A DNA stretch of 45,450 nt from Planctomycetota bacterium (GTDB lineage Bacteria > JAJVIF01 > JAPKYR01): assembly GCA_030614715.1 (NCBI GenBank), contig JAUWTM010000013.1, positions 1 through 45,450 on the forward strand, given 5' to 3'. Below the pieces are notes generated by a model. That model did not search any database, was not told the DNA's origin, and was given only the letters and a program-made list of their open reading frames with translations. A program made the translations under genes and the position numbers. Shown here one piece after another: positions 1,114 through 45,450 of this stretch. Position 1 is the stretch's first letter, and every line of letters starts with the position of its first letter.

Positions 1114-2671
1114 TCGATGGAAATTTTCATGAGGTAGGCGTCGCTGAGCCTGAACCAGCCTTCAGCATCTGCCGCTGGTGAATTCATCATGGCATCAACC
1201 TCGTCTTCAGACCAGCCAAATGCATTAGCAAGATAATCGATCTCATAATAGATGGGATAAGTACCTCCAATGATGAAAGCATCATCGCCTGTTATTTCAA
1301 GTACCAGGGGTTGAAAAAAGCTCCCAGTACCCCGCCATGTTATTGTCCATACGGTTTGCCATAGACGAACATGCCTGTTAAGAGCAGTAAACTCAACTGG
1401 TTGCTGTTCCGAAGCCAAGCGATCCATAAAATCTGGTTCATATTCTCGCTTGATCGAGAATAAGTCAGCATTTGAGTCGGATTGGAGATACCCTCTCCAT
1501 CCATCAGTCGAATAGATAGTGACAGACTCAACAGTTTCACCGGGTCCGATATCGAGTTCAGACTCAGAAGCGGCGATCATTCTGCCATCCGTCGAAAAGA
1601 CAAAGCGACCGCGTGCTAATAATTCATCGACGTTAATATCGTTTCGGAAATTGTGGCAGTCCCAGGTTGAGGTCCAGCGATACGTGCCCTCTGAGTTGTA
1701 AGTAGTCAAGTATTCAGTACAGGTTTCGAAGGGTACATGAATATCCTGTTCAGGACCCGGGTCGAAATCAATCGTTTCGAAAAAAAGTTACCACCAAGGT
1801 ACACATTGCCATCTACATCAGTTGTAAGGTGTTGAACATCTTCGTAGCCAGGGCCACCGAACGACCTGGACCAGAGATGATTCCCGGATGGATCGGTCTT
1901 AATCAGAAGAACATCCGAGACTCCGTAAAACCTATGCCCCCCGATATCTTCGTCGATATAAATATGGACCTGCTGATCTTTAAGTAGGCGAAAGTGCAGT
2001 TCTGGTTCCCACGTCCCCGCAATATAGATATTCTCTTCATGGTCCATAACTGCGATACAATTTCGTAAACTGGGCCAAGTCCGGACCCATCTGAAATAGC
2101 CGTCGGGATCGAAGGAAGACAGATAGGCCTGGGGACCGTCAGCCTTTCTGGATTCTGTAACGTCTTGACTGGGATCGAAATCTATCTCGCCGGAGAACGT
2201 GCCAGTAACATAGATATTCCCCACTGAATCGACTAGGACACCATTGGCATCATCATAACCCCCTTCTCCCCAGGTAATTGCCCACAGGACATTACCGCTG
2301 CTGTCGTGCTTCCCCAGGGTTGCATCGTATGCGCCTTCGGCGTTCCCGGTGTAACGGTAATGGCCCGGATCCAGGTCCGGGCGGCGTGCGAAATTGCTCA
2401 CGACAAGAATATTGCCTTCATTATCGATCGCGATGTCGGCTACGGATTCATCGCCGAGACGGCTGCCCCAGGTCTCGACCCACTCGACAGTGACGTCGCC
2501 GGGATCGAGGTCGCCGGTGACGGTGAGTTCGAAGGGATCGAAGTCGTTGGGATCGGGTCCGGACGGTTCGTTATCTGTCCGCGGGAAATCGCATGCCGTG
2601 CAGCATATGGCAAACAGTATTACGATGATGATCAGGACAAGGATAGTAATATTTTCTGGATTTCTATTCAT
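1098..2671 (-). pseudogene. SBBP-type beta-propeller lipoprotein, frameshifted as sequenced
   Basis: Two reading frames together encode one protein of about 520 residues, the length of the two upstream paralogues. The N-terminal part (start 2671) has a lipoprotein signal ending in lipobox CTAC at Cys27, then the family signature DPFELTVTGDLDPGDVTVEW and repeated NIYVTGTFSGEIDFDP units. After YLGGNFF the frame breaks at a run of seven A on the plus strand (1780-1786). The neighbouring frame continues at once as ETIDFDPGPEQDI and runs to a conserved C-terminus (AYLMKIS). One added base or two removed bases restores the whole protein. The start overlaps the stop of the paralogue upstream (ATGA). 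Likely an outer-membrane-anchored beta-propeller of unknown ligand. The break may be a sequencing error, decay or phase variation. Confidence 0.85.
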
Positions 2672-4257
2672 CGTCCCGTGGTATTGATCTCGAATGCGCT
2701 TTCATCGAAGGTCAGTTTCATGAGGAAAGCCTCGGATGTAGAAGCATACCGTCTATCATTTACAACCAGATCCCGATAAACACCCCTACACTCCTGTCGC
2801 AATAGGTAGCGCGTGTAAATACCTGAAACTACAATGTCTCGTGAACCGATAGTGTTCATTAACAGGGACCTTTCCGGACCCGGCCCACCCCAGGTTACCT
2901 CCCACGCGTCGCTGAAATCCTCGTTTAAATAATGCAGCACAAAGTCTGTTACTCCCCTGGAACTGGAACCCGGCCCTGATAACATTGTGGCTGAATCCCA
3001 GGACTGCTCGTCCAGCCTGAGCCACATGCAATGATCATCCACGGTGCAGATCGGCCCGCCGCCGTCCGAGACAGTATTATCGGTGTGCTCTGTCGGGATG
3101 AATTCACCATCTGTGGTAAATTCTCTCAACCACAATATGCATCGCTCATCGACTGACATCCGTACCGCGGATTCATCAACCGAGGATTCAAACTTATACT
3201 GGCCAGATACGATCAAATGGTCATCTATAATACAAAGCCCACTGACAACCGTCCAGTCGCGGTCTCCCCACGTTTGCGACCACCTGTAATTACCGTCCGA
3301 CGAGTACGATACCAGGTACGCATCGAACATTCTCGGCGACTCGTGACGAGTCGATTCAATCAATGGATCGAATGTAATGTCGAAATTAAAACTTCCGAGG
3401 AGATAAATGTTATCCTCCGTATCCTGCGTGAGAAATCCGACCAGGTCCGGGCCTTCGCCGCCGAACCCGCGACCCCACACGTAATTGCCCGACATATCCA
3501 GCTTGAGGAGGAAATCATCGAATCCAATGATGGCTTCGTACAATTCGACGCCCGGGCCGGGATCGAGATCGAACGCAACTCGATCGGAACCCTCGCTGAA
3601 ATCCTGAGACATGGTATTAATCCTGCCGACACCGTAAAGATAACTGTCATCCCCAACCAGCAAATGCGTTATATATCCCGGCCAGGTAGTCACCCAGCGG
3701 AAATTGCCTTCTGGATCGTACGATGCGAGCCAGCCGCAGTGCTCGTCGGCAAATCGTGTTTCCACGTTTTCATCCGACGGATCGAAATCGATCTGACCGC
3801 TGTACCATCCCCCGATGTAAGTATTCCCAGCCTCATCGACAGCTATTCCAATACAGGTGTTCGCATTCCATTTATTCAGGGTTAACTCCCACAACAATTC
3901 ACCATCCGGATCGTATTTAAGCAAGTACGTTGTCTTGAAGGAGGATAAATTGGACAGTTCAGGATTAGAGAGATCGAAATCGACAGGACCTTCAAATGAT
4001 CCGATCACGTAGATATTTCCGTCTTTATCCGAAGCCAGATCAGATATGAAGATATCTTCGGGAGCCGCCCAAGTTCGGACCCAGTCGACTGAAACATCGT
4101 CAGCGTCAAGATCACCTGAAACGGTAAGCTCGAATGGATCGATCCTTGTCGGATCGGTTCGAGCAGAAAACGGATTGCATCCGAGCAGACATACAAGGAC
4201 TAGTGTAATAACCAGACAGAAATCAATTCCCGATCTATATTCGTTATGGAATTTCAT
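2668..4257 (-). CDS. SBBP-type beta-propeller lipoprotein (middle paralogue)
   Basis: This 529-residue protein starts with a lipoprotein signal peptide whose lipobox LLGC puts the lipidated Cys at residue 27. It then has the family signature IDPFELTVSGDLD followed by VDWVRTW. The body is a series of blades with the pattern NIYVIGSFEGPVDFD and a WVTTWPG or WSQTWGD strand, roughly 60 residues apart, as in SBBP/beta-propeller repeat proteins. The C-terminus ends in SEAFLMKLTFDES, matching the AYLMKIS and TYLMKIS ends of its neighbours. Both ends overlap adjacent genes by four bases (ATGA), so it is the middle gene of a translationally coupled trio. Acidic DFDP motifs could bind calcium (inference). 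Probably surface or periplasmic; the ligand is unknown. Confidence 0.85.
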   Translation of the reverse strand: MKFHNEYRSGIDFCLVITLVLVCLLGCNPFSARTDPTRIDPFELTVSGDLDADDVSVDWVRTWAAPEDIFISDLASDKDGNIYVIGSFEGPVDFDLSNPELSNLSSFKTTYLLKYDPDGELLWELTLNKWNANTCIGIAVDEAGNTYIGGWYSGQIDFDPSDENVETRFADEHCGWLASYDPEGNFRWVTTWPGYITHLLVGDDSYLYGVGRINTMSQDFSEGSDRVAFDLDPGPGVELYEAIIGFDDFLLKLDMSGNYVWGRGFGGEGPDLVGFLTQDTEDNIYLLGSFNFDITFDPLIESTRHESPRMFDAYLVSYSSDGNYRWSQTWGDRDWTVVSGLCIIDDHLIVSGQYKFESSVDESAVRMSVDERCILWLREFTTDGEFIPTEHTDNTVSDGGGPICTVDDHCMWLRLDEQSWDSATMLSGPGSSSRGVTDFVLHYLNEDFSDAWEVTWGGPGPERSLLMNTIGSRDIVVSGIYTRYLLRQECRGVYRDLVVNDRRYASTSEAFLMKLTFDESAFEINTTGR

Positions 4258-5816
4258 TGATCCGGACTATCCCCAGCCGTAGGATTCTCAGCAATGGAAA
4301 TCTTCATCAGATAGGTGTCGTTAGTCGTTATAAAACCACCCGGACCGAGTTCCATGTCGCTGTATACACCCTGAAGGTCATCGCTGCCAAGGTAGTAACT
4401 GTAGGAGCCTGCTACAACAAATTCATAGTCATTTAAAACCACCATATGCGGGAACAACTCAAGTCCAGGGCCACCCCATGTTATGTCCCAAATCCGGTCA
4501 CCATCGGGCGTGAATCGACTCAGCGAAACATCATCTGCGCCATGAGGCCAGAAGAATTGCATATCCTGACCAAGCCGTACATCATTTTTAACAAGCGTGT
4601 AAATGGAACCGTCGGGACCTCCATATACAAGTCCATCGCGGTCCAGGCCGTAATTTTCAATGGTAGAAGCCCATTGATAGTCACCGTTAGTAGTGTAACT
4701 GATGAGGTACATGTCGAGAAAGTGTTTTTCAGATTGATTTGAAAGGTCCTCCGACGGACCGGGGTCGAAATCGAGCTGGAAGGTGTATTCACCAGTCATA
4801 AACACATTATTATTCAATGTGCAAACACCAGAGGAGTTAGTAATACCTTGCGCACCCAGTGTGTGTGACCATCTGTAATCACCGTCTGATGATAACGAGA
4901 GCAGGTATCCATCTAAGTCACCCGAAGCTGTGTGTACTGCCGTGCCGGGACCGGGATCGAAGTCCACATCATCCCTAAAACCACCCACGATATAGATATT
5001 GTTCTCTGAGTCATGAGTAATATCTCTGCCGTTATCAGATTCCGCTCCACCATAAGCCCGGGACCATATGTAGTTCCCGTCTGTGTCGATCTTCAGCACC
5101 AGTACATCCGTATAACCTCCCAGTTCGTACATGCTGGTTTCGGGACCGGGGTCGATGTCGATAAATCCGTCTTCTGTCGCAAATCTTGTTAGGTTAGCAG
5201 TAATTAAATCACTTACGACATATACACCTCCATCGTTATCTACGATCACATGAAATCCCGTTGCGCACGGCCACGTGTTCACCCAACGGAAATTCCCGTC
5301 TGAATCATATGATGCCAGAAATCCATCCTGCTCAACTGCAGTCCGGACAAATTCACCAGAAATTGACGGATCAAAATCAACACTGTTCTCATATCTACCG
5401 GTAATGTATATGTTTCCAGCATCATCCAGATCAAGCCCGCATGCCAAGCGAAAGTTCTCACCCTCCAGATTTATCACCCAGATAAATTCACCGGTGGGGG
5501 AATATTTCGCGAAGTACAAGTTATTGTCGTATGATTTCGCGATCTCCTCGGCTTCACCCGGGTCGAAATCGACCTCACCGTCAAAAGAACCAAGGCAATA
5601 AAAATAGCCATCGTCATCGACGGCCAGGTCACAGAAGAGCATGAATCCAGGACCTCCCCAGGTACGGACCCAATCGACCGATACATCTTCCTCGTTTAAA
5701 TCACCTAACACAGCAAGCTCGAAGGGATCGATCTCGGTTAGATCGGGATTTTTATTGCATCCAGCAAATGAGAAAAAAAGTAAGATGAGTACAATCCCTG
5801 TAATTACCTGTCTCAT
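4254..5816 (-). CDS. SBBP-type beta-propeller lipoprotein (first paralogue of the trio)
   Basis: This is the first gene of the three-lipoprotein operon, 520 residues long. The ATG at 5816 is preceded by a strong ribosome binding site (AGGAGGGAAC then ATG). The signal peptide ends in lipobox FAGC with Cys20. The signature IDPFELAVLGDLNEEDVSVD follows, then blades of the form DLAVDDDGYFYCLGSFDGEV, NIYITGRYENSVDFDP and NIYIVGGFRDDVDFDPGPG, with recurrent WVRTWGGPG and WSHTLG strands. It ends TYLMKISIAENP. The domain plan is identical to the next two genes, so the cluster arose by tandem duplication. An intrinsic terminator separates it from the cold-shock gene upstream, so it must have its own promoter or rely on read-through. 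Function unknown; probably an exported propeller. Confidence 0.87.
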   Translation of the reverse strand: MRQVITGIVLILLFFSFAGCNKNPDLTEIDPFELAVLGDLNEEDVSVDWVRTWGGPGFMLFCDLAVDDDGYFYCLGSFDGEVDFDPGEAEEIAKSYDNNLYFAKYSPTGEFIWVINLEGENFRLACGLDLDDAGNIYITGRYENSVDFDPSISGEFVRTAVEQDGFLASYDSDGNFRWVNTWPCATGFHVIVDNDGGVYVVSDLITANLTRFATEDGFIDIDPGPETSMYELGGYTDVLVLKIDTDGNYIWSRAYGGAESDNGRDITHDSENNIYIVGGFRDDVDFDPGPGTAVHTASGDLDGYLLSLSSDGDYRWSHTLGAQGITNSSGVCTLNNNVFMTGEYTFQLDFDPGPSEDLSNQSEKHFLDMYLISYTTNGDYQWASTIENYGLDRDGLVYGGPDGSIYTLVKNDVRLGQDMQFFWPHGADDVSLSRFTPDGDRIWDITWGGPGLELFPHMVVLNDYEFVVAGSYSYYLGSDDLQGVYSDMELGPGGFITTNDTYLMKISIAENPTAGDSPDQ

Positions 5817-36544: not shown

Positions 36545-36620
<76 letters not shown>

Positions 36621-36932: not shown

Positions 36933-39560
36933 TCACTCAGCCTTTTCCAACTCAGCCCGGATTTTATCGAGGATGGCTTTGCTTTTTTCGGTTTCCTCAG
37001 CTAATTCGTGCTTTGTGGCGATTTCGTACGCTTCTTCAGCAAGCGGGAGTGCTTTCTCAGGTTCATCTTTTCTTAACAACACATCAGCCTGATGGACAAT
37101 GGATCCTGATAGAGCATCCGGAATACCGACCTCTCTGGCAATAGATTCTGCCTCCTTTAGAATATTCATAGCGTCATCAAATTTACCGAGTTCTTTAAAT
37201 ATTCCTCCCTGGTTGTTAAGGCTAATCGAAACCCCATGTTTACGATCAAGCTCGCGACTGATAAGCTCATTTTCCCTGAAAAGCTCCATTGCACTGCCAA
37301 AGTCACCACGATCCTTGAGTATAACCCCCTGGTTACCAAGGTTTGCTGCCAGATCAGCTTTCAATCCAAGCTCGCGGCATATTCGTTCGGCCTCCTTGAA
37401 GACTGCCATCGCACCGTCCAGGTCACCACGTTGGCGGAGTATAATCCCCTGGTTGTTATAGCATGCCGAAAGCCCGGGCTTGTCCCCAAGCTCGCAGCAG
37501 ATGCGCTCCTGATCCTTGTACACCTTCATCGCACCGTCAAAGTCACCAAGGTCCTTGAGTATAATCCCCTGGTTACAAAGGCTTGCCGAAAGCCCGGAGT
37601 TATCACCAAGCTCTCGGCAGATTCGCTCATTCTCCTTTAAAAGCTTTAATGCATTGGCCAATTCACCACGTCGCCAAAGTATAAGTCCCTGATGACTACG
37701 GCATTTCCCAAACCTGGATCTATCACCAAGCTCGCGGTAGATTCGCTCAACCTCCTCCATTAACTTCATGGTACTGTCATAATCTCCGCGCATAAAGAGT
37801 ATGCCGCCTTGTCTGCTCAGGCATGTCGAAAGCCCGGATTTATCACCAAGCTCGCGGCAGATCTGCTCTGACTCCTTGTAGAGCTTCATCGCACCGTCAA
37901 AGTCACCCCGGTTATAAAGTGTAAATCCCTGGTGACCAAGGCTTGCAGCAAGCCCGGACTTATCATCGGCTTTGCGGAAGATGGACTCAGACTCTTTGTA
38001 AAGTACCATTGCGTCGTCATAGTCACCACGGTTATGGAGTAATAAACCCTGAGTTATGAGTGAATCAGCTAACTTCCTTTCTTCCCCGGTTCTCCGGAAG
38101 GTTTCAGTGAGGAAGTCCACCAAATAAATTGATTCAGATGGGTGGCCCGTATCTTTGAGCAGGTCCAAAACGCTGCTCAATGTATCGTTTTCCACCTTCT
38201 CCGGTGCATCCAGCACATCCTGGTAAGCACCTTTAAGAATCAGATCAGATGTATCCTCAATCTTCGCCCAATATGCCTTTACCTCGAATTGATCCATCTC
38301 CCATGCCTGTTTCAAGAACTCAAGATTGGCAAGCAGATCGTAAAGCCGCTTCCATTCCTCAGCTTCGCTCAGCTGCCATGGGAGTTCATCGACTTTTCGT
38401 GGATTTAATTCCTGTCCACCGAAATAATCCGCGAGAAGCAATCGCGCAGCTTTTTGCTTCTCATCGTCCTGTAAATACCGATCCTGAACAGCCTGACGCA
38501 TGTAATCATGGAAGAATGCAAGCAGGCCCGACCGACTGACCAGTAAATACTCAATTGATTTGCAGAATATCACCCACTGCGACTTGGGGAGAGGGGTAAC
38601 CTCAGCTCCAAGCAGACTCGTTATCTCCTCCTCGGCAAGGCCGCGCCGTGACGCCCAGATGCACACCAGTGCATCCTCGACCAGCCCCGGCCACTCCCGC
38701 TCATAGTCCTGCTCCAGACGTTTGATGACCCTTTCAAAAAGCTCCGGGATCGATTCGCTCGAAAGGTAATGATCGATCGCTCTCTCAAGGTGTCGATCCT
38801 CCTTATAAACATTCAGTTCATCGAGCACTGTTCTGAGGAACAACGGATTGTGGGTCTGCTCCGACGCAACGATCCTTTCCAGCCGTTCGGCACTGAGCGA
38901 TCTGCCGTAATGGTCCAGATATTCAACGGTTAGTTTATTTCTTCCGTCACGCGTGAGAGGTTCGATTGCGAGTGACGGCCAATCGCGCTTGTGCAGTTCG
39001 TCGAGGGGACGTCCGGGTAAAGTGGAGAGAATCAGCCGGATGTTTTCGGGAATCACAGGCGGGAGCCAGGTCAGATCGAGGGCGTTGTCCCTGTCCTCGA
39101 TCTGGTTCAACGCGTCAAGGATGAGCACAATGCGACCATTTGCCGACACCATGTGAAGCCAGTTCGTGAATGCCGATCTGAGCTGATCCGGTTCGGTCGG
39201 GATGTCCTGCTCAATGTCGAACCTGCGTTTGAACTCTCCCATGATGCGACGGAGCATCACAGCCCAGTCGGCGCTGTATGGTGTCGCACCGATGAAGTGA
39301 ATTATCAGGTGTTCGTCAGGATGTACACTCCGATATTCGTCCGCCCAGTTCGCGAGGAGCGCTGATTTCCCCGATCCCGATTCACCGAGAATTACGAGAG
39401 GTGGCCCGTCACTCGTGGCATGTTCATTCAGACGGTCAAAATATTCATCACTACCGATGTACACGCTGAACCGGCTCTGCGCGAACGCGTCGTGCTCCTC
39501 TGTATCGCGATCGAGTGGGTCGAGTAATGGTTGATCTAATGCTGTTTCTTTTTCCTGCAT
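36933..39560 (-). CDS. NACHT/STAND NTPase with TPR array, lacking the effector domain
   Basis: The 875-residue protein begins with MQEKETALDQPLLDPLDRDT and then directly aligns to residue 236 onward of the upstream 1060-residue gene. Walker A is GESGSGKSALLANW (residues 59-72), Walker B VLILDALNQIED, followed by LILSTLPGRPLDEL (sensor region) and the helical NTPase-associated region to about 500. Eight 40-residue TPR-type units (503-822) and a C-terminal cap ending ILDKIRAELEKAE follow. No DUF4062 or other N-terminal effector is present. An own ribosome binding site (AGGAG, 11 bases) and a 40-base gap from the upstream gene support independent translation of a real second gene, not a broken fragment. 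It may act as a regulator, decoy or co-assembling subunit (inference). Cytoplasmic; likely oligomerises on ligand sensing. Confidence 0.9.
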   Translation of the reverse strand: MQEKETALDQPLLDPLDRDTEEHDAFAQSRFSVYIGSDEYFDRLNEHATSDGPPLVILGESGSGKSALLANWADEYRSVHPDEHLIIHFIGATPYSADWAVMLRRIMGEFKRRFDIEQDIPTEPDQLRSAFTNWLHMVSANGRIVLILDALNQIEDRDNALDLTWLPPVIPENIRLILSTLPGRPLDELHKRDWPSLAIEPLTRDGRNKLTVEYLDHYGRSLSAERLERIVASEQTHNPLFLRTVLDELNVYKEDRHLERAIDHYLSSESIPELFERVIKRLEQDYEREWPGLVEDALVCIWASRRGLAEEEITSLLGAEVTPLPKSQWVIFCKSIEYLLVSRSGLLAFFHDYMRQAVQDRYLQDDEKQKAARLLLADYFGGQELNPRKVDELPWQLSEAEEWKRLYDLLANLEFLKQAWEMDQFEVKAYWAKIEDTSDLILKGAYQDVLDAPEKVENDTLSSVLDLLKDTGHPSESIYLVDFLTETFRRTGEERKLADSLITQGLLLHNRGDYDDAMVLYKESESIFRKADDKSGLAASLGHQGFTLYNRGDFDGAMKLYKESEQICRELGDKSGLSTCLSRQGGILFMRGDYDSTMKLMEEVERIYRELGDRSRFGKCRSHQGLILWRRGELANALKLLKENERICRELGDNSGLSASLCNQGIILKDLGDFDGAMKVYKDQERICCELGDKPGLSACYNNQGIILRQRGDLDGAMAVFKEAERICRELGLKADLAANLGNQGVILKDRGDFGSAMELFRENELISRELDRKHGVSISLNNQGGIFKELGKFDDAMNILKEAESIAREVGIPDALSGSIVHQADVLLRKDEPEKALPLAEEAYEIATKHELAEETEKSKAILDKIRAELEKAE
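37095..38054 (-). repeat. 120-bp coding repeat array, eight units (effectorless STAND gene)
   Basis: Eight consecutive 120-bp units encode the 40-residue motif NQGxxLxxRGDxDxAMxLxK plus ExExICRELGDKSGLxxxL. Seven are canonical and the last diverges into the cap. On the plus strand the same phrases (for example AAGCTCGCGGCAGAT) recur many times, so the DNA itself is repetitive. Confidence 0.85.
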
Positions 39561-39600
39561 TGTTGCGCTGCTCCTGGGTGAGTTTGACTTGCACTATGGA

Positions 39601-42600
39601 TCATTTTTCAAGCTCTGCACGGATTTTATCGAGGATGGCTTTGCTCGTTTCGATTTGGTCTGCAAATTCGTGCCTTGTGGCTATTTCGTACGCTTCTTCA
39701 GCAAGCGGGAGGGCTTTCTCCGGTTCACCTTGTCTAAATAAAACATCCGCCTGTTGGGAAAGGGATTGTGCTTCCTGGTCCGGAATCCCAATTTCTCTGG
39801 CAATTGATTCTGCTTCCCTAAGTAAATTCATTGCTTTATCATACTCACCGAGTTCTTTGTATGCATCACCTTGGCCAACTAGGCTTATCGAAAGCTCATG
39901 CTTATCACTAAGCTCACGGCAGATGTACTCCTTCTCCTTATAAAACTTCAGCGCACCGTCATAGTCACCACGATCCTTAAGAATATTCCCTTGGTTGCTA
40001 AGGCTCGCTGAAAGCCCACGTTTATCATTAAACTCGCGGCAGATGCGCTCCTGCTTCTTATAAAGCACCATGGCGCCGTCATAGTCACCTCGATCCTTGA
40101 GTAAAAGCCCCTGGTTGCCAAGGCTTGACGAAAGCCCAAACTTATCACCAAACTCGCGGCAGATGCGCTCCTGCTCCTTGTAGAGCTTCATGGCGCCATC
40201 CAGGTCACCGCGTAGGTAGAGTATAATCCCCTGGTAACCAAGGCTTTTCGAAAGGCCAGACTTATTACCAAGTTCACGGCAAATTCGCTCATCCTCCTTG
40301 AATAGCTCCATCGCGCCTTCCAGGTCGCCACGTTGCCAGAGTATACCTCCTTGATTGGAAAAACTTTTCGAAAGCCCTGACTTATCTCCAAGCTCACGGC
40401 TGATGCGTTCATGCTCCTTAAAAAGCGCCATGGCGCCGTCATAGTCACCTCGTTGCCAGAGTATATTCCCCTGGTTGCATTGGCTTGATGAAAGCTCTTG
40501 CTTATCTCCAAGCTCACGACAAATACGTTCATCCTCCTTGAATAGCTCCATCGCGCCGTCGCAGTCAGCTTGGTGCCAGAGGATCACCCCTTGTACCCTT
40601 AGTGAGACAGATAGTTTCTTGTTTTCACCAGACTTCCGGTAGATATCAGTGAGGAATTTGTGCAATATCAATGATTCCGATAGGTGCCCTGTGTCAGCGA
40701 GTAGGTTCGAAATGTGCATTACAGTTTCGTCGTTAGTTACTTTGTCCGGTGCAACCAGCACCCGTTGATAAGCATCGACAAGACTCAGATCAGATGAATT
40801 CTCGACTTTCGCCCAGCAGGTTTTAACTTCGAACTGATCTTTCTCCCATGCTTCGTGGAAAAACTCCAAATCCCCCAGCAGATCGTTAAGCCGCTGCCAG
40901 TCCTCGGCTTCGCTCAGTTGCCATGGGAGTTCATCAACTTTCCGGGGGTTGATATCCTTTCCAGTGAAATAATCCGCGAGTAGCAACCGCGCAGCTTTTT
41001 GCTTCTTCTCGTCGTGCAGATATCTTTCGTGAATCGCCTCGCGTATGTAGTCATGGGCAAATCCAAGCAAACCCCCACGGTTCACCCACATACGCTCAAC
41101 AGCGTCGTGGAACCTGATCCACTGACCTCTCGGCAGAGGTTCACCGTCGGTTCCCAGAAGATCGAGTAGTTCCTCCTCAGAAAGTCCCCGACGTGACGCC
41201 CAGATGCAGGTCATCGCGTCCTGAACAAGACCGGGCCACTCGCGGTCATAGTCCTGTTCGAGACGTCTTAGAATTTTCTCGTAAAGTGCGGGAATTGTGT
41301 CCGCATCCAGAAAATATTTGATCGCTCTGTTCAGGTTAGGATGCACACCAAACTGACGTAACTCATCCAGCAGTGCCCGTAAGTACAGGGGATTACTTGT
41401 ATGCTCTGAACTCGTGATCTTGTCTATCCGGACTGTGTTGAGGTTTTTACCGTAGAATCCAAGGTAATCATCAATGAGCTGCCTGCACTCGGAATCCTGG
41501 AGGGGCATGACATCCATCGTCGACCATTCGCGTTTCGTAAGATCATCGAGTGGACGTCCGGGAAGTGTTGAAAGAATCAACCGGATGTTCTCCGGAATCG
41601 ATGGTGGCAGCCAGACGAGATCGGGAGCCTGGTCGCGATCCTCAAGCTGGTTGAGCGCGTCGAGTATCAGGACTATTTTCGCATCCCCCTGCCCAGCTGC
41701 AGCAGACGCCATGTGAAGCCAGTTCGTGAATGCTGGTCGAAGCTTATCAGGTTCGGTTGGAATGTCCTGCTGAATGTCGAATCGACGTTTGAACTCTCCC
41801 ATGATTCGTCGAAGCATCGCGGCCCAGTCGGCACTGTACGGTGTCGCGCCAATAAAATGAGTAATCACGTGATCTTCAGGATGCTCCTCGCGATATTTTT
41901 CGATCCAGTTCGCCAGCAACGCCGATTTACCGGACCCGGACTCGCCCAGCACGACAAGCGGCTGGCCATCCGACTGAACATGTCCGTTCAAACGGTCGAA
42001 GTATTCATCGCGTCTGATGTACACGCGGAATCGACTCTGCGCGAATGCATCGTGTTCGGCAGCTTCCTGATCGAGTGGATCGAACTCCTCGTCTTCAGGG
42101 AACAGATCGTCAATGACGGTCCTGAAGTCCTCCAGCACCCTCTCTCCCAGTTGTTTAGGATTCTCGTATGACTCCCTGACTGGAAGTCCGCTTTGTCTGA
42201 TCCTGTCCTTGAGGTCGATCAGCTTCTTACGTCGCTGCTGTGCACGATTTTCAGCCTTTGCATCTCCTAGCTGCTCTATTTCATCATTCGTGGGACTCTC
42301 GATAAGCTCCACTCGCTTCTCGGCAGTTACCGTGTTGACGTACACCGGATCACGCAGATAGAAATACGCATGGTCCGCTGTACCCGGATCGTTCAGAGCG
42401 CCGTGCAGAATTTCCAGTTCGCAGACCGACCTATCACGATGCTCATCAAGCCAGGGTTCCCGGTTGACCAGTTCCTCCGGTATTTCATCCGGGACCGAGC
42501 CGTACCTGTCACCAAGCATGCCGATGAAGAACGGTTTGCACTCACCGATCTCCCTGAGGCAGATAGGAAGCACTTTACCCTCAGCCTGCTCCTCATCGGT

Positions 42601-42783
42601 AATTCCCCATCGAAGGTCTATCGCGCCCCACGTGACTCCGCGCTTCTCGCACATGCTCCGGAGCTGCGGAAACACGTGCTTTACCAGATGCTCGCGCTCC
42701 TCCTTCATGTCATGAAAGGTCGAGGAGATGAATACACGGATTACCCGATTTTTCACTAAGTCAGGTGTCAGTACTGCCTTCAT
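39601..42783 (-). CDS. DUF4062 (TIR-like)-NACHT/STAND-TPR protein
   Basis: The 1060-residue protein has three parts. Residues 15-150 are DUF4062, a TIR-like Rossmann domain: RVFISSTFHDMKEEREHLVK, AIDLRWGITDEEQ, CLREIGECKPFFIGMLGDRY. Residues 236-700 are a NACHT-type STAND ATPase with Walker A GESGSGKS (280-287) and Walker B VLILDA (371-376), then ILSTLPGRPLDDL. Residues 730-1009 are seven 40-residue TPR-type units with a cap ending ILDKIRAELEK. The same plan occurs in animal NPHP3 and NWD1/TEP1-like proteins and in bacterial conflict systems. The start follows AGGAGG. STAND proteins sense a ligand through the C-terminal repeats, oligomerise and activate the N-terminal effector. An anti-phage or self/non-self role is inference. 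Its effectorless paralogue follows 40 bases downstream. Confidence 0.92.
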   Translation of the reverse strand: MKAVLTPDLVKNRVIRVFISSTFHDMKEEREHLVKHVFPQLRSMCEKRGVTWGAIDLRWGITDEEQAEGKVLPICLREIGECKPFFIGMLGDRYGSVPDEIPEELVNREPWLDEHRDRSVCELEILHGALNDPGTADHAYFYLRDPVYVNTVTAEKRVELIESPTNDEIEQLGDAKAENRAQQRRKKLIDLKDRIRQSGLPVRESYENPKQLGERVLEDFRTVIDDLFPEDEEFDPLDQEAAEHDAFAQSRFRVYIRRDEYFDRLNGHVQSDGQPLVVLGESGSGKSALLANWIEKYREEHPEDHVITHFIGATPYSADWAAMLRRIMGEFKRRFDIQQDIPTEPDKLRPAFTNWLHMASAAAGQGDAKIVLILDALNQLEDRDQAPDLVWLPPSIPENIRLILSTLPGRPLDDLTKREWSTMDVMPLQDSECRQLIDDYLGFYGKNLNTVRIDKITSSEHTSNPLYLRALLDELRQFGVHPNLNRAIKYFLDADTIPALYEKILRRLEQDYDREWPGLVQDAMTCIWASRRGLSEEELLDLLGTDGEPLPRGQWIRFHDAVERMWVNRGGLLGFAHDYIREAIHERYLHDEKKQKAARLLLADYFTGKDINPRKVDELPWQLSEAEDWQRLNDLLGDLEFFHEAWEKDQFEVKTCWAKVENSSDLSLVDAYQRVLVAPDKVTNDETVMHISNLLADTGHLSESLILHKFLTDIYRKSGENKKLSVSLRVQGVILWHQADCDGAMELFKEDERICRELGDKQELSSSQCNQGNILWQRGDYDGAMALFKEHERISRELGDKSGLSKSFSNQGGILWQRGDLEGAMELFKEDERICRELGNKSGLSKSLGYQGIILYLRGDLDGAMKLYKEQERICREFGDKFGLSSSLGNQGLLLKDRGDYDGAMVLYKKQERICREFNDKRGLSASLSNQGNILKDRGDYDGALKFYKEKEYICRELSDKHELSISLVGQGDAYKELGEYDKAMNLLREAESIAREIGIPDQEAQSLSQQADVLFRQGEPEKALPLAEEAYEIATRHEFADQIETSKAILDKIRAELEK
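39757..40596 (-). repeat. 120-bp coding repeat array, seven units (DUF4062-STAND gene)
   Basis: Seven 120-bp units encode 40-residue repeats, six canonical plus one divergent before the cap. The unit consensus is the same as in the downstream paralogue, which has one unit more. Confidence 0.85.
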
Positions 42784-42818
42784 GAGAGCCTCCTACTTAT
42801 TTCAGTTAGTACAGTTTC

Positions 42819-45450
42819 CTACCAGCAACCATCGGAAAGGTGCTTTGTCAGGAAGGCATCGCTGCCGCCATTGGACATATGGTCATCAGTATCATTGTTG
42901 CATGGTGGTTCAGTTGGAGCGAAATCTACTGTGCTGTAGAAATAGCCTGTGACATAAGCACTCCCGGAGTTATCGGTAGCGACATCCAGACCTAGATCGA
43001 AATATCCACTCCCCCAAGTCTGAACCCAGTCAAAATTACCCAAATCATCGAACTTACTGAGGAAGACATCAACCCCACCGTATGAGGTTCTAGACTCACC
43101 ACCCTCAGGATCGAAATCAACGACACTAGAAAAATAACCGACATTATAGACGTCCCCGGAATCGCCAACGGCCAACGCCCTTCCTAGATCGGGTCCTGTG
43201 CCTCCCCATGTCCTTGCCCAATTGTAATTACCCAATGTATTAATGCTGCTAAGGAAAACATCGTAATCACCAAGCGAGGTGTGTGGGTCGCCACCACTGG
43301 GATTGAAATCAGCTGTGCCTTCAAAAATACCGGTAACATATACACTGCCAACATCGTCAGCAATGAGGCCCAAACCTTCATCCACTCCGGTTCCACCCCA
43401 GGTCCGTGCCCAGTCGTAGGTACCGGAAGAATTGAACTTGCTCAGGTACACATCATAACTACCGTTCGATGCCTGGTTGTCACCACCATCAGGATCGAAA
43501 TAAGCTCCATAACCAAAATAACCCGTAATAAAAATGTTACCAGAACTGTCCGATGCAACACCAAGACCCCGGTCCTGGTTATAACCACCCCAAGTCTGTG
43601 CCCATAAAAAGTTTCCGAGAGCATCGAATTTACATAGAAAAGCATCATCAACACCATACGAACTGTGTTCATCACCACCATCCGGGTCGAAATCAACTGT
43701 GCCATAAAATTTACCAGTTACGTAAACAGCTCCAGATCCGTCAGCGGTTACATCTTGTCCGTAATCAGTTCCCGATCCACCCCATACTTGAGCCCATTTG
43801 TAATTACCTGAGGACTCGAACTTGCTCACGAAGACATCATAATCACCATTCGACGTCTGGAGATCACCCCCACCGGGATTGAAGTCTACGGAGTTCATGA
43901 AATGACCCGTAACGAATACATTTCCCAAGCTGTCAGTCGCAACTCCTCCTTCAATATATTCATTCCCCGGGCCACCCCAAGTCAGCGCCCAAATAAAGTT
44001 TCCAGAGGCATCGAATTTACTCAGGAAAACGTCACGCCCACCATTTGAACTCTGCTCATCACCACCTTCCGGATCAAATTCAACTGTGCCACTGAATTGG
44101 CCTGCAACGTAGATATTCCCAATGCTGTCAGTGGCAACGCTTCGGCCGGAATCCCAATCTGTGCCCCCCCAAGTCCTTGCCCAGCCCATGCCGGTAACAC
44201 TGAAATCTCCATCGGATACATCATTCACTTCAGGATCTTCCGTCGAGCTGATCCTGATGCGTACTGAATCGGACGGCGGACACTGGATCGGATCCCATAT
44301 GTAACTGCCGTCGTCCCCCTCATCCGAAGTAATTTGATTGATGTCTGAGTCGAAATTATCCCTTGAATACTCGATGAACAAGGTACCCGTGACGTTACCC
44401 GAGTCCCAGGTTATCTCCTCGCTGCTTCCGTTCTCCCATTCCTCTCCGCCATTGGGGCTGGTTACCTCGATCCATGCAGGAATCTCATCCGTGACTGCGA
44501 GGTCGTACCGGAAGAAAGCCGCAAGGGTATCATTGCCGGCCTGGTTGGGGACGCCGAAGTCGTTTGAATAATCCTCACCGGCGATCTCAGCGATCACCCA
44601 GAACTCGTTACCATCGAGTGCATTAACATTATCGGCCGGGATCTCGACATGATACGTGGAATAGTTCTCTCCACCTCCGACACCGACCATCTCAGTTCCG
44701 GTAAATTCGTGTGGGGTTGTCAGGACTGTTGACTCAAGAACGATCTTCGAAGGCTGCTCACCCCATGCATAGAGGCTGATGTCCAGGTTAAGATTACCTC
44801 CGTTAGTTCCAGGATCGATATAAAAAATGCTGCTGTTGTCATCGATCCGGCACCCCACCGCCTCGGGGGCATTCGATGGATGAACGTCCTCCGCCTCCCA
44901 GTTCGCCAGAACCGCATAGCCGTAAGTAATTCCCTTCGTGTCAGGGAATCTCAGGTAGTAATTCCGTCGGTTTGTCGAGCCGGACGCAAATACACCGTTA
45001 TTACCGGTGGACGTCAGAAAATCCCAGAGGTTTTCCGTTACGTGAAGACCGTCCGCGAAGTATTTGAAGGGATTCAGGGTCGCGTCGCCATAAAATCCCG
45101 GTGTAGCCACGTTCCCCGGCGTGTAACCGAACAATCCGGGGACTGTAAACTCACCAGGATTAAACCAACGGGTGTAACCGTCCGCGTTCAGTAGCGCCTG
45201 ATCCACTCCTGGTTCGGCATAACGAAGATTACCGTTGTATGCGAGTGAATCGGAGCTGTCGCCGATGAACACACCTCTGACATCATAGCCATCGTACTGA
45301 TGCAGGCCCGGCAGCGGGTGAGTGAGGCCCACGTCGATATCGACATCGATGTAACCGGGACCACTCGGTGTGTCGTTAATGCTGAATTGCAGTCCAGCGG
45401 GATTATTATTCAGGAAAGTAACGACATTTGCTGCAAACATCACCTTGCGA
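42819..45450 (-). CDS. Large multi-domain SBBP beta-propeller protein, 5' end outside window
   Basis: The frame is open at the right edge, so the N-terminus and any signal peptide are outside. Visible residues (about 875) comprise an N-terminal beta-rich region (to about 320), a Ser-Thr-rich Kre9/Knh1-like domain (ITSPNGGEEWENGSSEEITW to FSVTG, about 330-420), and seven SBBP repeats of about 63 residues. Each repeat reads WARTWGGTxxDxGRxVATDS, GNIYVTGxFxGTVDFDP, GGDxxxSNGxxDVFLSKFD. It ends GGSDAFLTKHLSDGCW, with a terminal fold similar to the lipoprotein trio at 1098-5816. Likely secreted or surface exposed; repeated Asp motifs could bind Ca2+. Its stop is 35 bases before the DUF4062-STAND start, on the same strand. 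Whether they are co-transcribed is not known. Confidence 0.88.
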   Translation of the reverse strand, partial: RKVMFAANVVTFLNNNPAGLQFSINDTPSGPGYIDVDIDVGLTHPLPGLHQYDGYDVRGVFIGDSSDSLAYNGNLRYAEPGVDQALLNADGYTRWFNPGEFTVPGLFGYTPGNVATPGFYGDATLNPFKYFADGLHVTENLWDFLTSTGNNGVFASGSTNRRNYYLRFPDTKGITYGYAVLANWEAEDVHPSNAPEAVGCRIDDNSSIFYIDPGTNGGNLNLDISLYAWGEQPSKIVLESTVLTTPHEFTGTEMVGVGGGENYSTYHVEIPADNVNALDGNEFWVIAEIAGEDYSNDFGVPNQAGNDTLAAFFRYDLAVTDEIPAWIEVTSPNGGEEWENGSSEEITWDSGNVTGTLFIEYSRDNFDSDINQITSDEGDDGSYIWDPIQCPPSDSVRIRISSTEDPEVNDVSDGDFSVTGMGWARTWGGTDWDSGRSVATDSIGNIYVAGQFSGTVEFDPEGGDEQSSNGGRDVFLSKFDASGNFIWALTWGGPGNEYIEGGVATDSLGNVFVTGHFMNSVDFNPGGGDLQTSNGDYDVFVSKFESSGNYKWAQVWGGSGTDYGQDVTADGSGAVYVTGKFYGTVDFDPDGGDEHSSYGVDDAFLCKFDALGNFLWAQTWGGYNQDRGLGVASDSSGNIFITGYFGYGAYFDPDGGDNQASNGSYDVYLSKFNSSGTYDWARTWGGTGVDEGLGLIADDVGSVYVTGIFEGTADFNPSGGDPHTSLGDYDVFLSSINTLGNYNWARTWGGTGPDLGRALAVGDSGDVYNVGYFSSVVDFDPEGGESRTSYGGVDVFLSKFDDLGNFDWVQTWGSGYFDLGLDVATDNSGSAYVTGYFYSTVDFAPTEPPCNNDTDDHMSNGGSDAFLTKHLSDGCW

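What the first reader, a model, noticed from the sequence alone, without database searches (positions are those of the whole stretch)
36933..42783. STAND pair: TIR-like effector protein beside an effectorless paralogue
The first gene has DUF4062, NACHT and TPR parts. The second starts exactly where the effector would end (its residue 13 onward aligns with residue 236 onward of the first), and it has its own AGGAG. Both keep intact Walker A and B motifs, so this is not simple decay. STAND effector proteins are known in bacterial defence; a dedicated effector-free partner could tune threshold, block auto-activation or widen ligand range by mixed oligomers. That is inference; I know of no such described pair for DUF4062.
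Basis: partly seen in the sequence, partly recalled or inferred. Interest (0 to 1): 0.75.

Follow-up and report, generated by a model that had tools for sequence, protein, structure and literature searches.

The report
NADase immune sensor beside effector-free twin
Two neighbouring genes of an uncultured bacterium encode a predicted infection sensor armed with an NAD-destroying domain and a diverged twin that kept the ATPase motor and sensor but lost the weapon; tandem sensors recur in this family, but among the loci examined an unarmed partner was seen only here.

Summary
Gene A (42783-39601, -) is DUF4062-NACHT-TPR (1060 aa). Gene B (39560-36933, -) is NACHT-TPR (875 aa), 60% identical to A from A234 on. 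A's DUF4062 matches the solved TIR-like NADase domain of human TEP1 (E 1.7e-21); a 2026 preprint describes DUF4062 as a TIR-like NADase family with an antiphage member. B's first 500 residues model confidently as a full STAND module (highest TM among listed matches: Apaf-1).
B did not evolve neutrally: A-B dN/dS is about 0.1 in the nucleotide-binding domain, where B's branch is no longer than A's. The pair is 81% identical there but 48% in HD1-winged-helix, an outlier among family pairs.
The pair is not a recurrent module. In 79 related loci, 85 of 87 near-full NACHT ORFs carry DUF4062 in frame, one has it in a neighbouring frame, one (Kuenenia, solitary) lacks it. In the 11 other tight tandem pairs, both members carry an effector. 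A sister-genus relative is truncated.
Most likely, B is a tandem duplicate kept as an effector-free subunit that joins or tunes A's NADase ring. The mixed ring is inference; the DUF4062 loss cannot be dated.

The parts
39601..42783 (-). Gene A: DUF4062-NACHT-TPR STAND protein, 1060 aa
42085..42783 (-). A residues 1-233: DUF4062 (TIR-like) domain, AF2 pLDDT 95
   Evidence: Pfam; PDB 11gz (human TEP1) E 1.7e-21, profile E 3.9e-46; model
42412..42414 (-). Codon of A Glu124, probable catalytic Glu (conserved in 75 of 77 rows); E122 two residues before is 70 of 77
   Evidence: the choice of E124 over E122 is inferred
40864..42084 (-). A residues 234-640: NACHT/STAND module
41920..41946 (-). A Walker A (GESGSGKSA)
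41647..41676 (-). A Walker B region (IVLILDALNQ)
39604..40605 (-). A TPR region (40-residue units)
42789..42794 (-). AGGAGG before A, 5 nt spacing
39561..39600 (-). 40-nt gap between A stop and B start
39571..39575 (-). AGGAG before B, 10 nt spacing
36933..39560 (-). Gene B: effector-free NACHT-TPR paralogue, 875 aa
39360..39386 (-). B Walker A (GESGSGKSA)
39102..39131 (-). B Walker B region (IVLILDALNQ)
38061..39560 (-). B residues 1-500, modelled STAND module (NBD-HD1-WHD-HD2 and first helical repeats), pLDDT 94
   Evidence: model; Foldseek
38475..38984 (-). B residues 193-362, HD1 plus winged helix, the part of the STAND module that diverged most from A (48% identity; boundaries set by me from the model)
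36936..38072 (-). B TPR region (one more 40-residue unit than A in the alignment)

Best explanation
A is a STAND immune sensor: TPRs sense a ligand, the NACHT motor oligomerises, and the N-terminal DUF4062 TIR-like domain then hydrolyses NAD+. B is a tandem duplicate that lost the DUF4062 and was kept as a working effector-free subunit. The proposed mechanism is that B, translated from the same transcript, joins A in mixed rings through the nearly unchanged nucleotide-binding domain. Its altered HD1-winged-helix latch and its own TPRs change which ligand or how much of it is needed, while it dilutes the NADase count per ring. Shown: anatomy, common descent, selection on B averaged over its history, domain pattern. 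From literature: NADase activity of other DUF4062 proteins. Inferred: A's activity, co-transcription, mixed rings, tuning.
For: A's DUF4062 is homologous to the human TEP1 TIR domain and keeps 49 of 50 family-conserved positions. B residues 1-500 model at pLDDT 94 and match full-length Apaf-1 over 485 columns (TMq 0.57, the highest of the 50 listed; rmsd 6.0), so a full STAND module is present without an N-terminal effector. A and B are sisters with 100/100 support in a 91-row NACHT tree. Nucleotide-binding domain: A-B dN 0.147, dS 1.69 (near saturation), ratio 0.09; end branches B 0.13, A 0.16. Neutral simulation: mean 4.95 stops (minimum 1) at 10% and 9.3 (minimum 3) at 20% protein divergence, 100 runs each; B has none. 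HD1-WHD identity is far below what the NBD identity predicts (residual -0.18, sd 0.054; 2 of 2,345 non-independent pairs are as low), with similar silent divergence in both parts. Four of B's six changes at 71 conserved NACHT positions lie in HD1. Same strand, 40-nt gap, own ribosome-binding site.
Against: The pair occurs in none of the 79 other loci examined, so no co-conservation supports a partnership. Selection is averaged over the time since duplication; DUF4062 may have been lost recently, and no second member of this genus is held to date it. B departs from 6 of 71 conserved NACHT positions against 3 in A (ninth most deviant of 69 rows), and the other effector-free member (Kuenenia L104) departs most, 17 of 71, which fits relaxed constraint. 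B's branch over the whole NACHT is longer than A's (0.38 against 0.27). From HD2 to the C-terminus silent divergence is lower (dS 0.5-1.0; codon-identity clustering P 0.02, 0.12 and 0.79 in three window sizes), so past exchange between copies may blur the history. In HD1-WHD the sister-genus fragment groups with A rather than B, without starred support. PADLOC models gave only TPR and weak mads_8 or other TPR hits for A and B. No promoter or terminator signal above chance, no expression data, no complex model.
Confidence: 0.4

Rival explanations
1. B is an evolutionary leftover: a tandem copy whose DUF4062 was lost recently and that is at the start of decay. The low dN/dS reflects the earlier time when it still carried the effector.
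For: Tandem copies recur in the family (11 other tight pairs). The sister genus G002 holds a copy whose ORF starts within the NACHT, after the Walker motifs. B is somewhat faster than A over the whole NACHT (0.38 against 0.27) and deviates at twice as many conserved positions. None of the 79 loci shows the pair.
Against: Intact 875-codon frame with its own ribosome-binding site, clean cut at the domain boundary, no significant trace of DUF4062 sequence left. B's changes cluster in HD1, and its nucleotide-binding domain is as constrained as A's, whereas decay should be even.
Confidence: 0.25
2. B is a negative regulator (decoy or dominant-negative subunit) that keeps A silent by capping or poisoning rings; it does not widen sensing.
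For: Effector loss with an intact motor is the expected form of a poison subunit (inference). HD1-WHD divergence could lock B in the resting state. Tight control is plausible because TEP1 TIR activity rose with its concentration, which its authors take to suggest activation by oligomerisation (PMC13174449, section read).
Against: No direct evidence. B also keeps a full TPR array of its own, which a simple brake would not need.
Confidence: 0.18
3. B acts alone as an effector-less STAND defence protein that kills or signals through a separate protein.
For: Bacterial NACHT proteins bNACHT02 and bNACHT12 lack discernible effector domains, and phage MS2 escape mutants were raised on them, which implies protection (PMC12169576, passages read). 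A solitary effector-free relative exists in Candidatus Kuenenia hertensis, the only match in that genome to A's first 650 residues.
Against: B has only about 12 residues before the NACHT homology and no recognised adaptor domain, and its nearest relatives carry DUF4062. It lies directly behind A.
Confidence: 0.12
4. The two genes work independently as two sensors of different ligands, B being inactive or of unrelated function.
For: In the other tight tandem pairs each member carries its own effector, which suggests independent units.
Against: B carries no effector, so independence would leave it without output.
Confidence: 0.05

Closest known systems
DUF4062 TIR-like NADases: Swarozyc (KpSwz) and human TEP1 (PMC13174449, preprint 2026)
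   Same: A has the same N-terminal domain. Sequence match to the TEP1 TIR structure 11gz is E 1.7e-21. TEP1, NWD1, NWD2 and NPHP3 also join DUF4062 to NACHT.
   Different: KpSwz chains (326 aa) match only weakly (10wc: profile E 3.8e-4 over 24 positions; A alone E 0.52), and KpSwz has a portal-binding auxiliary domain where A has NACHT-TPR. No effector-free partner is mentioned in the parts I read; the supplement was not seen.
Human nephrocystin-3 (NPHP3) architecture
   Same: DUF4062 next to NACHT; TPRs by the Pfam model names. Pfam NPHP3_N, NPHP3, NPHP3_hel and TPR_NPHP3 hit A, all below their gathering cut-offs.
   Different: Human NPHP3 showed no NADase activity in the same preprint. The match is architectural and distant.
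Antiviral STANDs (Avs), bacterial NACHT (bNACHT) and CARD-NLR-like systems
   Same: Effector-NACHT-sensor layout; B's model matches Avs3 (8dgc, E 5e-8, TMq 0.36). Some bNACHTs lack a discernible effector.
   Different: Avs and bNACHT act as single genes (recalled). LypABC, a CARD-NLR-like system, has three genes, but its partners are peptidases (PMC13236601, abstract). Here an effector-bearing and an effector-free paralogue are adjacent.
Duplicated STAND targets of diversity-generating retroelements (PMC10907252, passages)
   Same: Two adjacent STAND genes; at one locus duplicated NACHT targets without an identified adaptor domain.
   Different: Their sensor is a C-type lectin domain, the two targets are not an armed and an unarmed member, and no DUF4062 is mentioned in the passages seen.
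Plant sensor-helper NLR pairs
   Same: Two STAND genes that could divide sensing and output.
   Different: Plant pairs are frequently head to head (PMC12258605, passage); this pair is head to tail, and no division of labour was tested.
Tandem pairs found here (L036, L039, L065, L074, L088, L089, L095, L100, L102, L105, L113)
   Same: A DUF4062-NACHT gene and a second STAND-type gene in tandem, same strand, gap under 300 nt.
   Different: Both members carry an effector: DUF4062 plus DUF4062 in eight, DUF4062 plus TIR_2 in three (L039, L102, L105). In L039 the partner is TIR_2-DUF7779-TPR and its NTPase is presumed, not matched.

Membership tests
STAND / NACHT proteins | Walker A and Walker B in a NACHT-type P-loop domain | tested here: met
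   Motifs in A and B. PF05729 is above its cut-off in B (31.7 against 26.7), below it in A (23.9); AAA_16 above in both. Of 71 conserved columns 3 are changed in A and 6 in B
STAND / NACHT proteins | NBD-HD1-WHD(-HD2) fold | tested here: met
   B model, pLDDT 94, matches Apaf-1 over 485 columns; A not modelled here, by 64% identity to B over this stretch
STAND / NACHT proteins | C-terminal superstructure repeats | tested here: met
   TPR hits in both
STAND / NACHT proteins | N-terminal effector domain | tested here: inconclusive
   Met in A (DUF4062), not met in B
STAND / NACHT proteins | Ligand-triggered oligomerisation | not testable with these tools
   needs protein
DUF4062 TIR-like NADase family | PF13271 above cut-off and homology to a proven NADase domain | tested here: met
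   Gene A only: 50.8 bits against cut-off 24.7; TEP1 TIR 11gz E 1.7e-21. Gene B has none
DUF4062 TIR-like NADase family | TIR fold seen by structure comparison | tested here: inconclusive
   Foldseek of the A model against PDB (entries to 8 April 2026) gave no match at E <= 0.001 and no TIR among the 50 listed of 1005 matches at E <= 10
DUF4062 TIR-like NADase family | Catalytic glutamate | tested here: met
   E124 in 75 of 77 rows, E122 in 70 of 77; A has both. Which one is catalytic is inferred. A alone has Cys where the other 76 rows have Thr (position 121)
DUF4062 TIR-like NADase family | NAD+ hydrolysis | not testable with these tools
   needs assay
Swarozyc defence system (KpSwz type) | DUF4062 followed by the portal-binding auxiliary domain | tested here: not met
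   A has NACHT-TPR instead; the DUF4062 profile matches KpSwz only over 24 positions
Sensor-helper STAND pair | Recurrent conserved linkage of the two gene types | tested here: not met
   0 of 79 other loci; 49 weaker relatives of the scan were not seen
Sensor-helper STAND pair | Functional dependence of one gene on the other | not testable with these tools
   needs genetics
Pseudogene (for B) | Frame damage or neutral substitution pattern | tested here: not met
   No stop in 875 codons; dN/dS 0.23-0.32 overall and about 0.1 in the NBD, averaged over the time since duplication

The most novel reading that the evidence does not exclude
An effector-free STAND subunit encoded with its NADase-bearing paralogue forms mixed rings with it, so a bacterium sets its NAD-depletion threshold by subunit mixing: same motor, different latch and sensor, fewer executioner domains per ring. 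It would be a bacterial counterpart of sensor-helper NLR pairs, arisen by deletion of the effector.
Probability: 0.3. Interest if true: 0.75.

Novelty: new variant of a known kind. Interest (0 to 1): 0.45.

Why it matters
If B works through A, it shows that bacterial NLR-like immunity can divide labour between an armed and an unarmed subunit, so that activation thresholds are tuned by stoichiometry. It would also give a simple two-gene model for DUF4062-NACHT proteins, the architecture shared with human TEP1, NWD1, NWD2 and NPHP3. If B is only a leftover, the survey still documents recurrent tandem pairs in this family, some with TIR-bearing partners.

Tried and rejected
Viral contigs and phage records held no relative at the limits used. 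Of 56 plasmid records with a match, 20 were listed: one 31.5% DUF4062 protein in a Chloroflexota record over 52% of A, and otherwise matches to A's C-terminal half, mostly TPR. Foldseek of the DUF4062 model against PDB gave no significant match and no TIR in the 50 listed rows; the TIR link rests on sequence homology to TEP1 and on the preprint. At E 1e-40, 400 genomes of the phylum of G065 (a Chloroflexi locus) gave 1 of 400, the centre itself; the phylum of G039 gave 1 of 7, again the centre. Promoter-like (3, expected 5.8) and terminator-like sites (5, expected 5.8) were not above chance, so the operon claim rests on spacing. Gene conversion as the cause of the high NBD identity was set aside, because silent sites there are near saturation (four-fold identity 0.36, dS 1.7); exchange in the second half of the genes remains possible. 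An island at the nearby tRNA-Met was considered: no long repeat of the tRNA end was among the 20 of 24 repeat families shown. The LysM-MarR neighbours are conserved in G001 and G002; in G002 a gene that reads by eye as leucyl-tRNA synthetase follows MarR instead of the pair, and in G001 the contig ends 315 nt after MarR. GC content of the pair is that of the window. The neutral simulation used B as its own starting point, because no ancestor is known.
Full report
Observation. The window is contig C242 of a 4.29-Mb draft genome (254 contigs, 87% complete) whose phylum has five held genomes, itself included. Two long ORFs lie head to tail on the minus strand: A (42783-39601, 1060 aa) and B (39560-36933, 875 aa), 40 nt apart. 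A has DUF4062 (PF13271, E 2e-13), AAA_16 and TPRs, with NACHT below its cut-off. B has AAA_16, NACHT and TPRs and no DUF4062 hit. BLASTP aligns A 234-1060 with B 13-873 at 60% identity. Both Walker motifs are intact in both genes. PADLOC models gave only TPR-protein hits and weak mads_8 hits.

The effector. A profile of 77 DUF4062 domains (A plus 76 from relatives) finds the TIR domain of human TEP1 (11gz) at E 3.9e-46, and A's domain alone finds it at E 1.7e-21. KpSwz is matched only weakly (E 3.8e-4 over 24 positions). The preprint PMC13174449 (outline and abstract, the text up to the start of the portal-complex section, 12 of 15 found passages, the TEP1 section, discussion and figure legends read) reports that DUF4062 is a TIR-like NADase family, that KpSwz depletes NAD+ and aborts infection, and that of four purified human proteins only TEP1 was active. 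A keeps 49 of 50 highly conserved DUF4062 positions; the exception is Cys where the other 76 rows have Thr121. Glu124 (75 of 77) is the probable catalytic residue. If the 220-residue TEP1 chain ends at residue 1113, the aligned Glu would be TEP1 E1008; that offset is inferred, and Glu122 (70 of 77) is not excluded. The AF2 model is confident (pLDDT 95), but Foldseek gave no match at E 0.001 and no TIR among the 50 listed. NADase activity of A is therefore predicted from homology.

The effector-free twin. B residues 1-500, folded with 68 other sequences (A and 67 relatives), give pLDDT 94. The best E-value is an archaeal ATPase (2qen, 1.3e-8); Avs3 follows, and full-length Apaf-1 has the highest TMq of the 50 listed (0.57 over 485 columns, rmsd 6.0), with Apaf-1-ADP and a chain of the maltose-regulation complex 8bob also listed. 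B therefore looks like a complete STAND module with only about 12 residues where Apaf-1 has its CARD (position recalled and from the preprint discussion).

Origin and selection. In a 91-row NACHT tree A and B are sisters with 100/100 support (end branches 0.27 and 0.38). With the G002 fragment included, the three lineages nearly trifurcate (A+B 84/53). Identity of that fragment to A and B (62% and 60% over 255 columns) is similar to that of the LysM protein between the same genera (64%), so the duplication may be about as old as the genus split (inference; rates differ between proteins). Overall A-B dN/dS is 0.23-0.32 by three methods. By region (NG86, boundaries mine): linker plus NBD dN 0.147, dS 1.69; HD1+WHD dN 0.418, dS 1.94; HD2 dN 0.148, dS 0.85; next 67 codons dN 0.409, dS 1.02; TPR dN 0.300, dS 0.96; C-terminus dN 0.121, dS 0.49. 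The first two dS values are near saturation, with wide bootstrap ranges (1.14-3.55 and 1.20-3.32). NBD end branches are 0.13 (B) and 0.16 (A). Neutral simulation gave means of 4.95 stops (minimum 1) at 10% and 9.3 (minimum 3) at 20% protein divergence, 100 runs each. B was thus under selection for most of its history. The time of the DUF4062 loss is not resolved, so selection since the loss is not proven.

Same motor, different latch. A and B are 81% identical in the NBD (24 relatives average 64% to each), 48% in HD1-WHD (residues 193-362; on residues 181-362 it is 51%, with relatives at 51% to A and 47% to B) and 73% in HD2 (relatives 47-48%). Given the NBD identity, HD1-WHD identity is 0.18 lower than expected (3.3 sd; 2 of 2,345 non-independent pairs are as low), while HD2 is somewhat higher than expected (133 of 2,345 as high). 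Silent divergence is similar in NBD and HD1-WHD, so the contrast appears to come from protein-level selection. The lower silent divergence from HD2 onward suggests later exchange between the copies (clustering of identical codons P 0.02, 0.12 and 0.79 for windows of 30, 20 and 15). B changes 6 of 71 conserved NACHT columns and A 3; four of B's six lie in HD1. Against my reading: B is the ninth most deviant of 69 rows, and the other effector-free protein, L104, is the most deviant. In the HD1-WHD tree the G002 fragment sits with A, not B, without starred support; in the HD2 tree A and B are sisters at 99/95.

How common is the arrangement? One scan of 84,980 species genomes with an alignment of the NACHT region (not biased towards DUF4062, but requiring short exact motifs) found 129 relatives. 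The tool kept the best 80, giving 79 loci; the other 49 were not seen. In these, 87 ORFs from 74 of 79 loci cover at least 300 of 398 profile positions with a hit at E 1e-100 or better. Of these, 85 carry DUF4062 in frame, one (L093) has it in an overlapping upstream frame, and one (L104, Candidatus Kuenenia hertensis) lacks it. Left out of that count as partial or weak, without DUF4062 in frame: L038, L046, L047 and L109 (cut by an end of the locus), L094 (two fragments), L111 (C-terminal half 3 kb after a DUF4062-bearing N-terminal half), and L102 (two) and L105, whose NACHT is distant and whose N-terminus is TIR (Pfam for one of L102 and for L105; by eye for the other). L104 is solitary, lies beside flagellar genes, and is the only match in that genome to A's first 650 residues. 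Tight tandem pairs (same strand, gap under 300 nt) occur in 11 loci: L036, L065, L074, L088, L089, L095, L100 and L113 with DUF4062 on both (in L113 the first one is cut by the contig end); L039, L102 and L105 with DUF4062 on one and TIR_2 on the other. L039's partner is TIR_2-DUF7779-TPR; its NTPase was not matched at the limit used, so it is a presumed STAND. L088 and L089 are from one genome, and so are L100 and L105. Dropped from this count: L038 (upstream gene cut at its start), L093 (broken frame) and pairs further apart. In none of the 11 is the partner effector-free. One search listed 65 tight same-strand neighbour rows (some twice) of 138 around 74 ORFs; I sent 19 to Pfam and did not annotate the rest. 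The 19 include RyR, RelA/SpoT, TPR-S with cyclase, TIR and AAA proteins; 4 had no hit.

Kin. G002 (same family, 82% complete) holds an ORF whose homology starts at A392, inside the NACHT after the Walker motifs, beside a gene that reads by eye as methionine synthase, plus a C-terminal fragment at another contig end. After MarR, where the window has the tRNA-Met and the pair, G002 has a gene that reads by eye as leucyl-tRNA synthetase. G001, G003 and G004 gave no hit to A's first 650 residues. So no syntenic counterpart was found.

Mechanism. The NADase step is from literature plus homology. A STAND ring is the standard mode of the family (recalled). The A-B ring is inference, supported by the shared NBD, the shared locus and the retained motor of B. 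The rivals are early decay (0.25), a pure brake (0.18), a solitary effector-less STAND (0.12), for which bNACHT02 and bNACHT12 are precedents (PMC12169576, 12 of 13 passages), and independence (0.05).

Novelty. Each part belongs to a known kind. The effector-free member beside its armed paralogue is a variant that did not appear in the listings of searches of an open-access library. Inactive STANDs in MoxR-vWA systems (PMC7159879, 12 of 17 passages) and duplicated STAND targets of diversity-generating retroelements, one pair of them without an identified adaptor domain (PMC10907252, 12 of 21 passages), are related themes.

Noticed in passing
L039:10741-13548, L102:11255-14440, L105:11093-14563: A DUF4062-NACHT gene is followed within 100 nt by a TIR_2-TPR gene (NACHT seen in L102 and L105, NTPase presumed in L039) in a WOR-3 MAG and two Polynucleobacter genomes: tandem STANDs with two different NADase-type effectors.
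   Followed up: partly
L104:7998-10820 (Candidatus Kuenenia hertensis): Solitary effector-free NACHT-TPR relative between flagellar genes and a GGDEF-EAL gene; the only match in that genome search, and the most deviant NACHT of the 69 compared.
   Followed up: partly
G000:C62:9000-14274 (L120:2520-4565 and 4600-5274): A second DUF4062 in the same genome: a DUF4062 protein (cut by the contig end) 34 nt after a 681-aa protein with a P-loop-like motif by eye but no Pfam hit, possibly a two-gene system.
   Followed up: no
G002:C68:19118-19405: A DUF4062 match in a 632-aa frame of the sister genus; the same contig has TPR matches to A, without NACHT in the search with A's first 650 residues.
   Followed up: no
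L030 (G039:C98:1-14000): Two DUF4062-NACHT genes flank a cluster that resembles a MoxR-vWA ternary conflict system (assignment by eye from the translations).
   Followed up: no
L091:5417-7348: TPR-S plus guanylate-cyclase protein 7 nt before a DUF4062-NACHT gene in an Opitutae MAG.
   Followed up: no
window 36545-36620 (+): tRNA-Met(CAT) 312 nt past the end of B; in G002 the MarR gene is followed by what reads by eye as leucyl-tRNA synthetase instead.
   Followed up: partly
window 42819-45443 (-) and 2668-4257 (-): SBBP beta-propeller repeat proteins; the first, just upstream of A, runs nearly to the end of the contig with 192-nt repeats.
   Followed up: no
A residue 121 (window 42421-42423, -): Cys where the 76 other DUF4062 rows have Thr, next to the probable catalytic Glu; recalled TIR motifs often have Cys there.
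   Followed up: no
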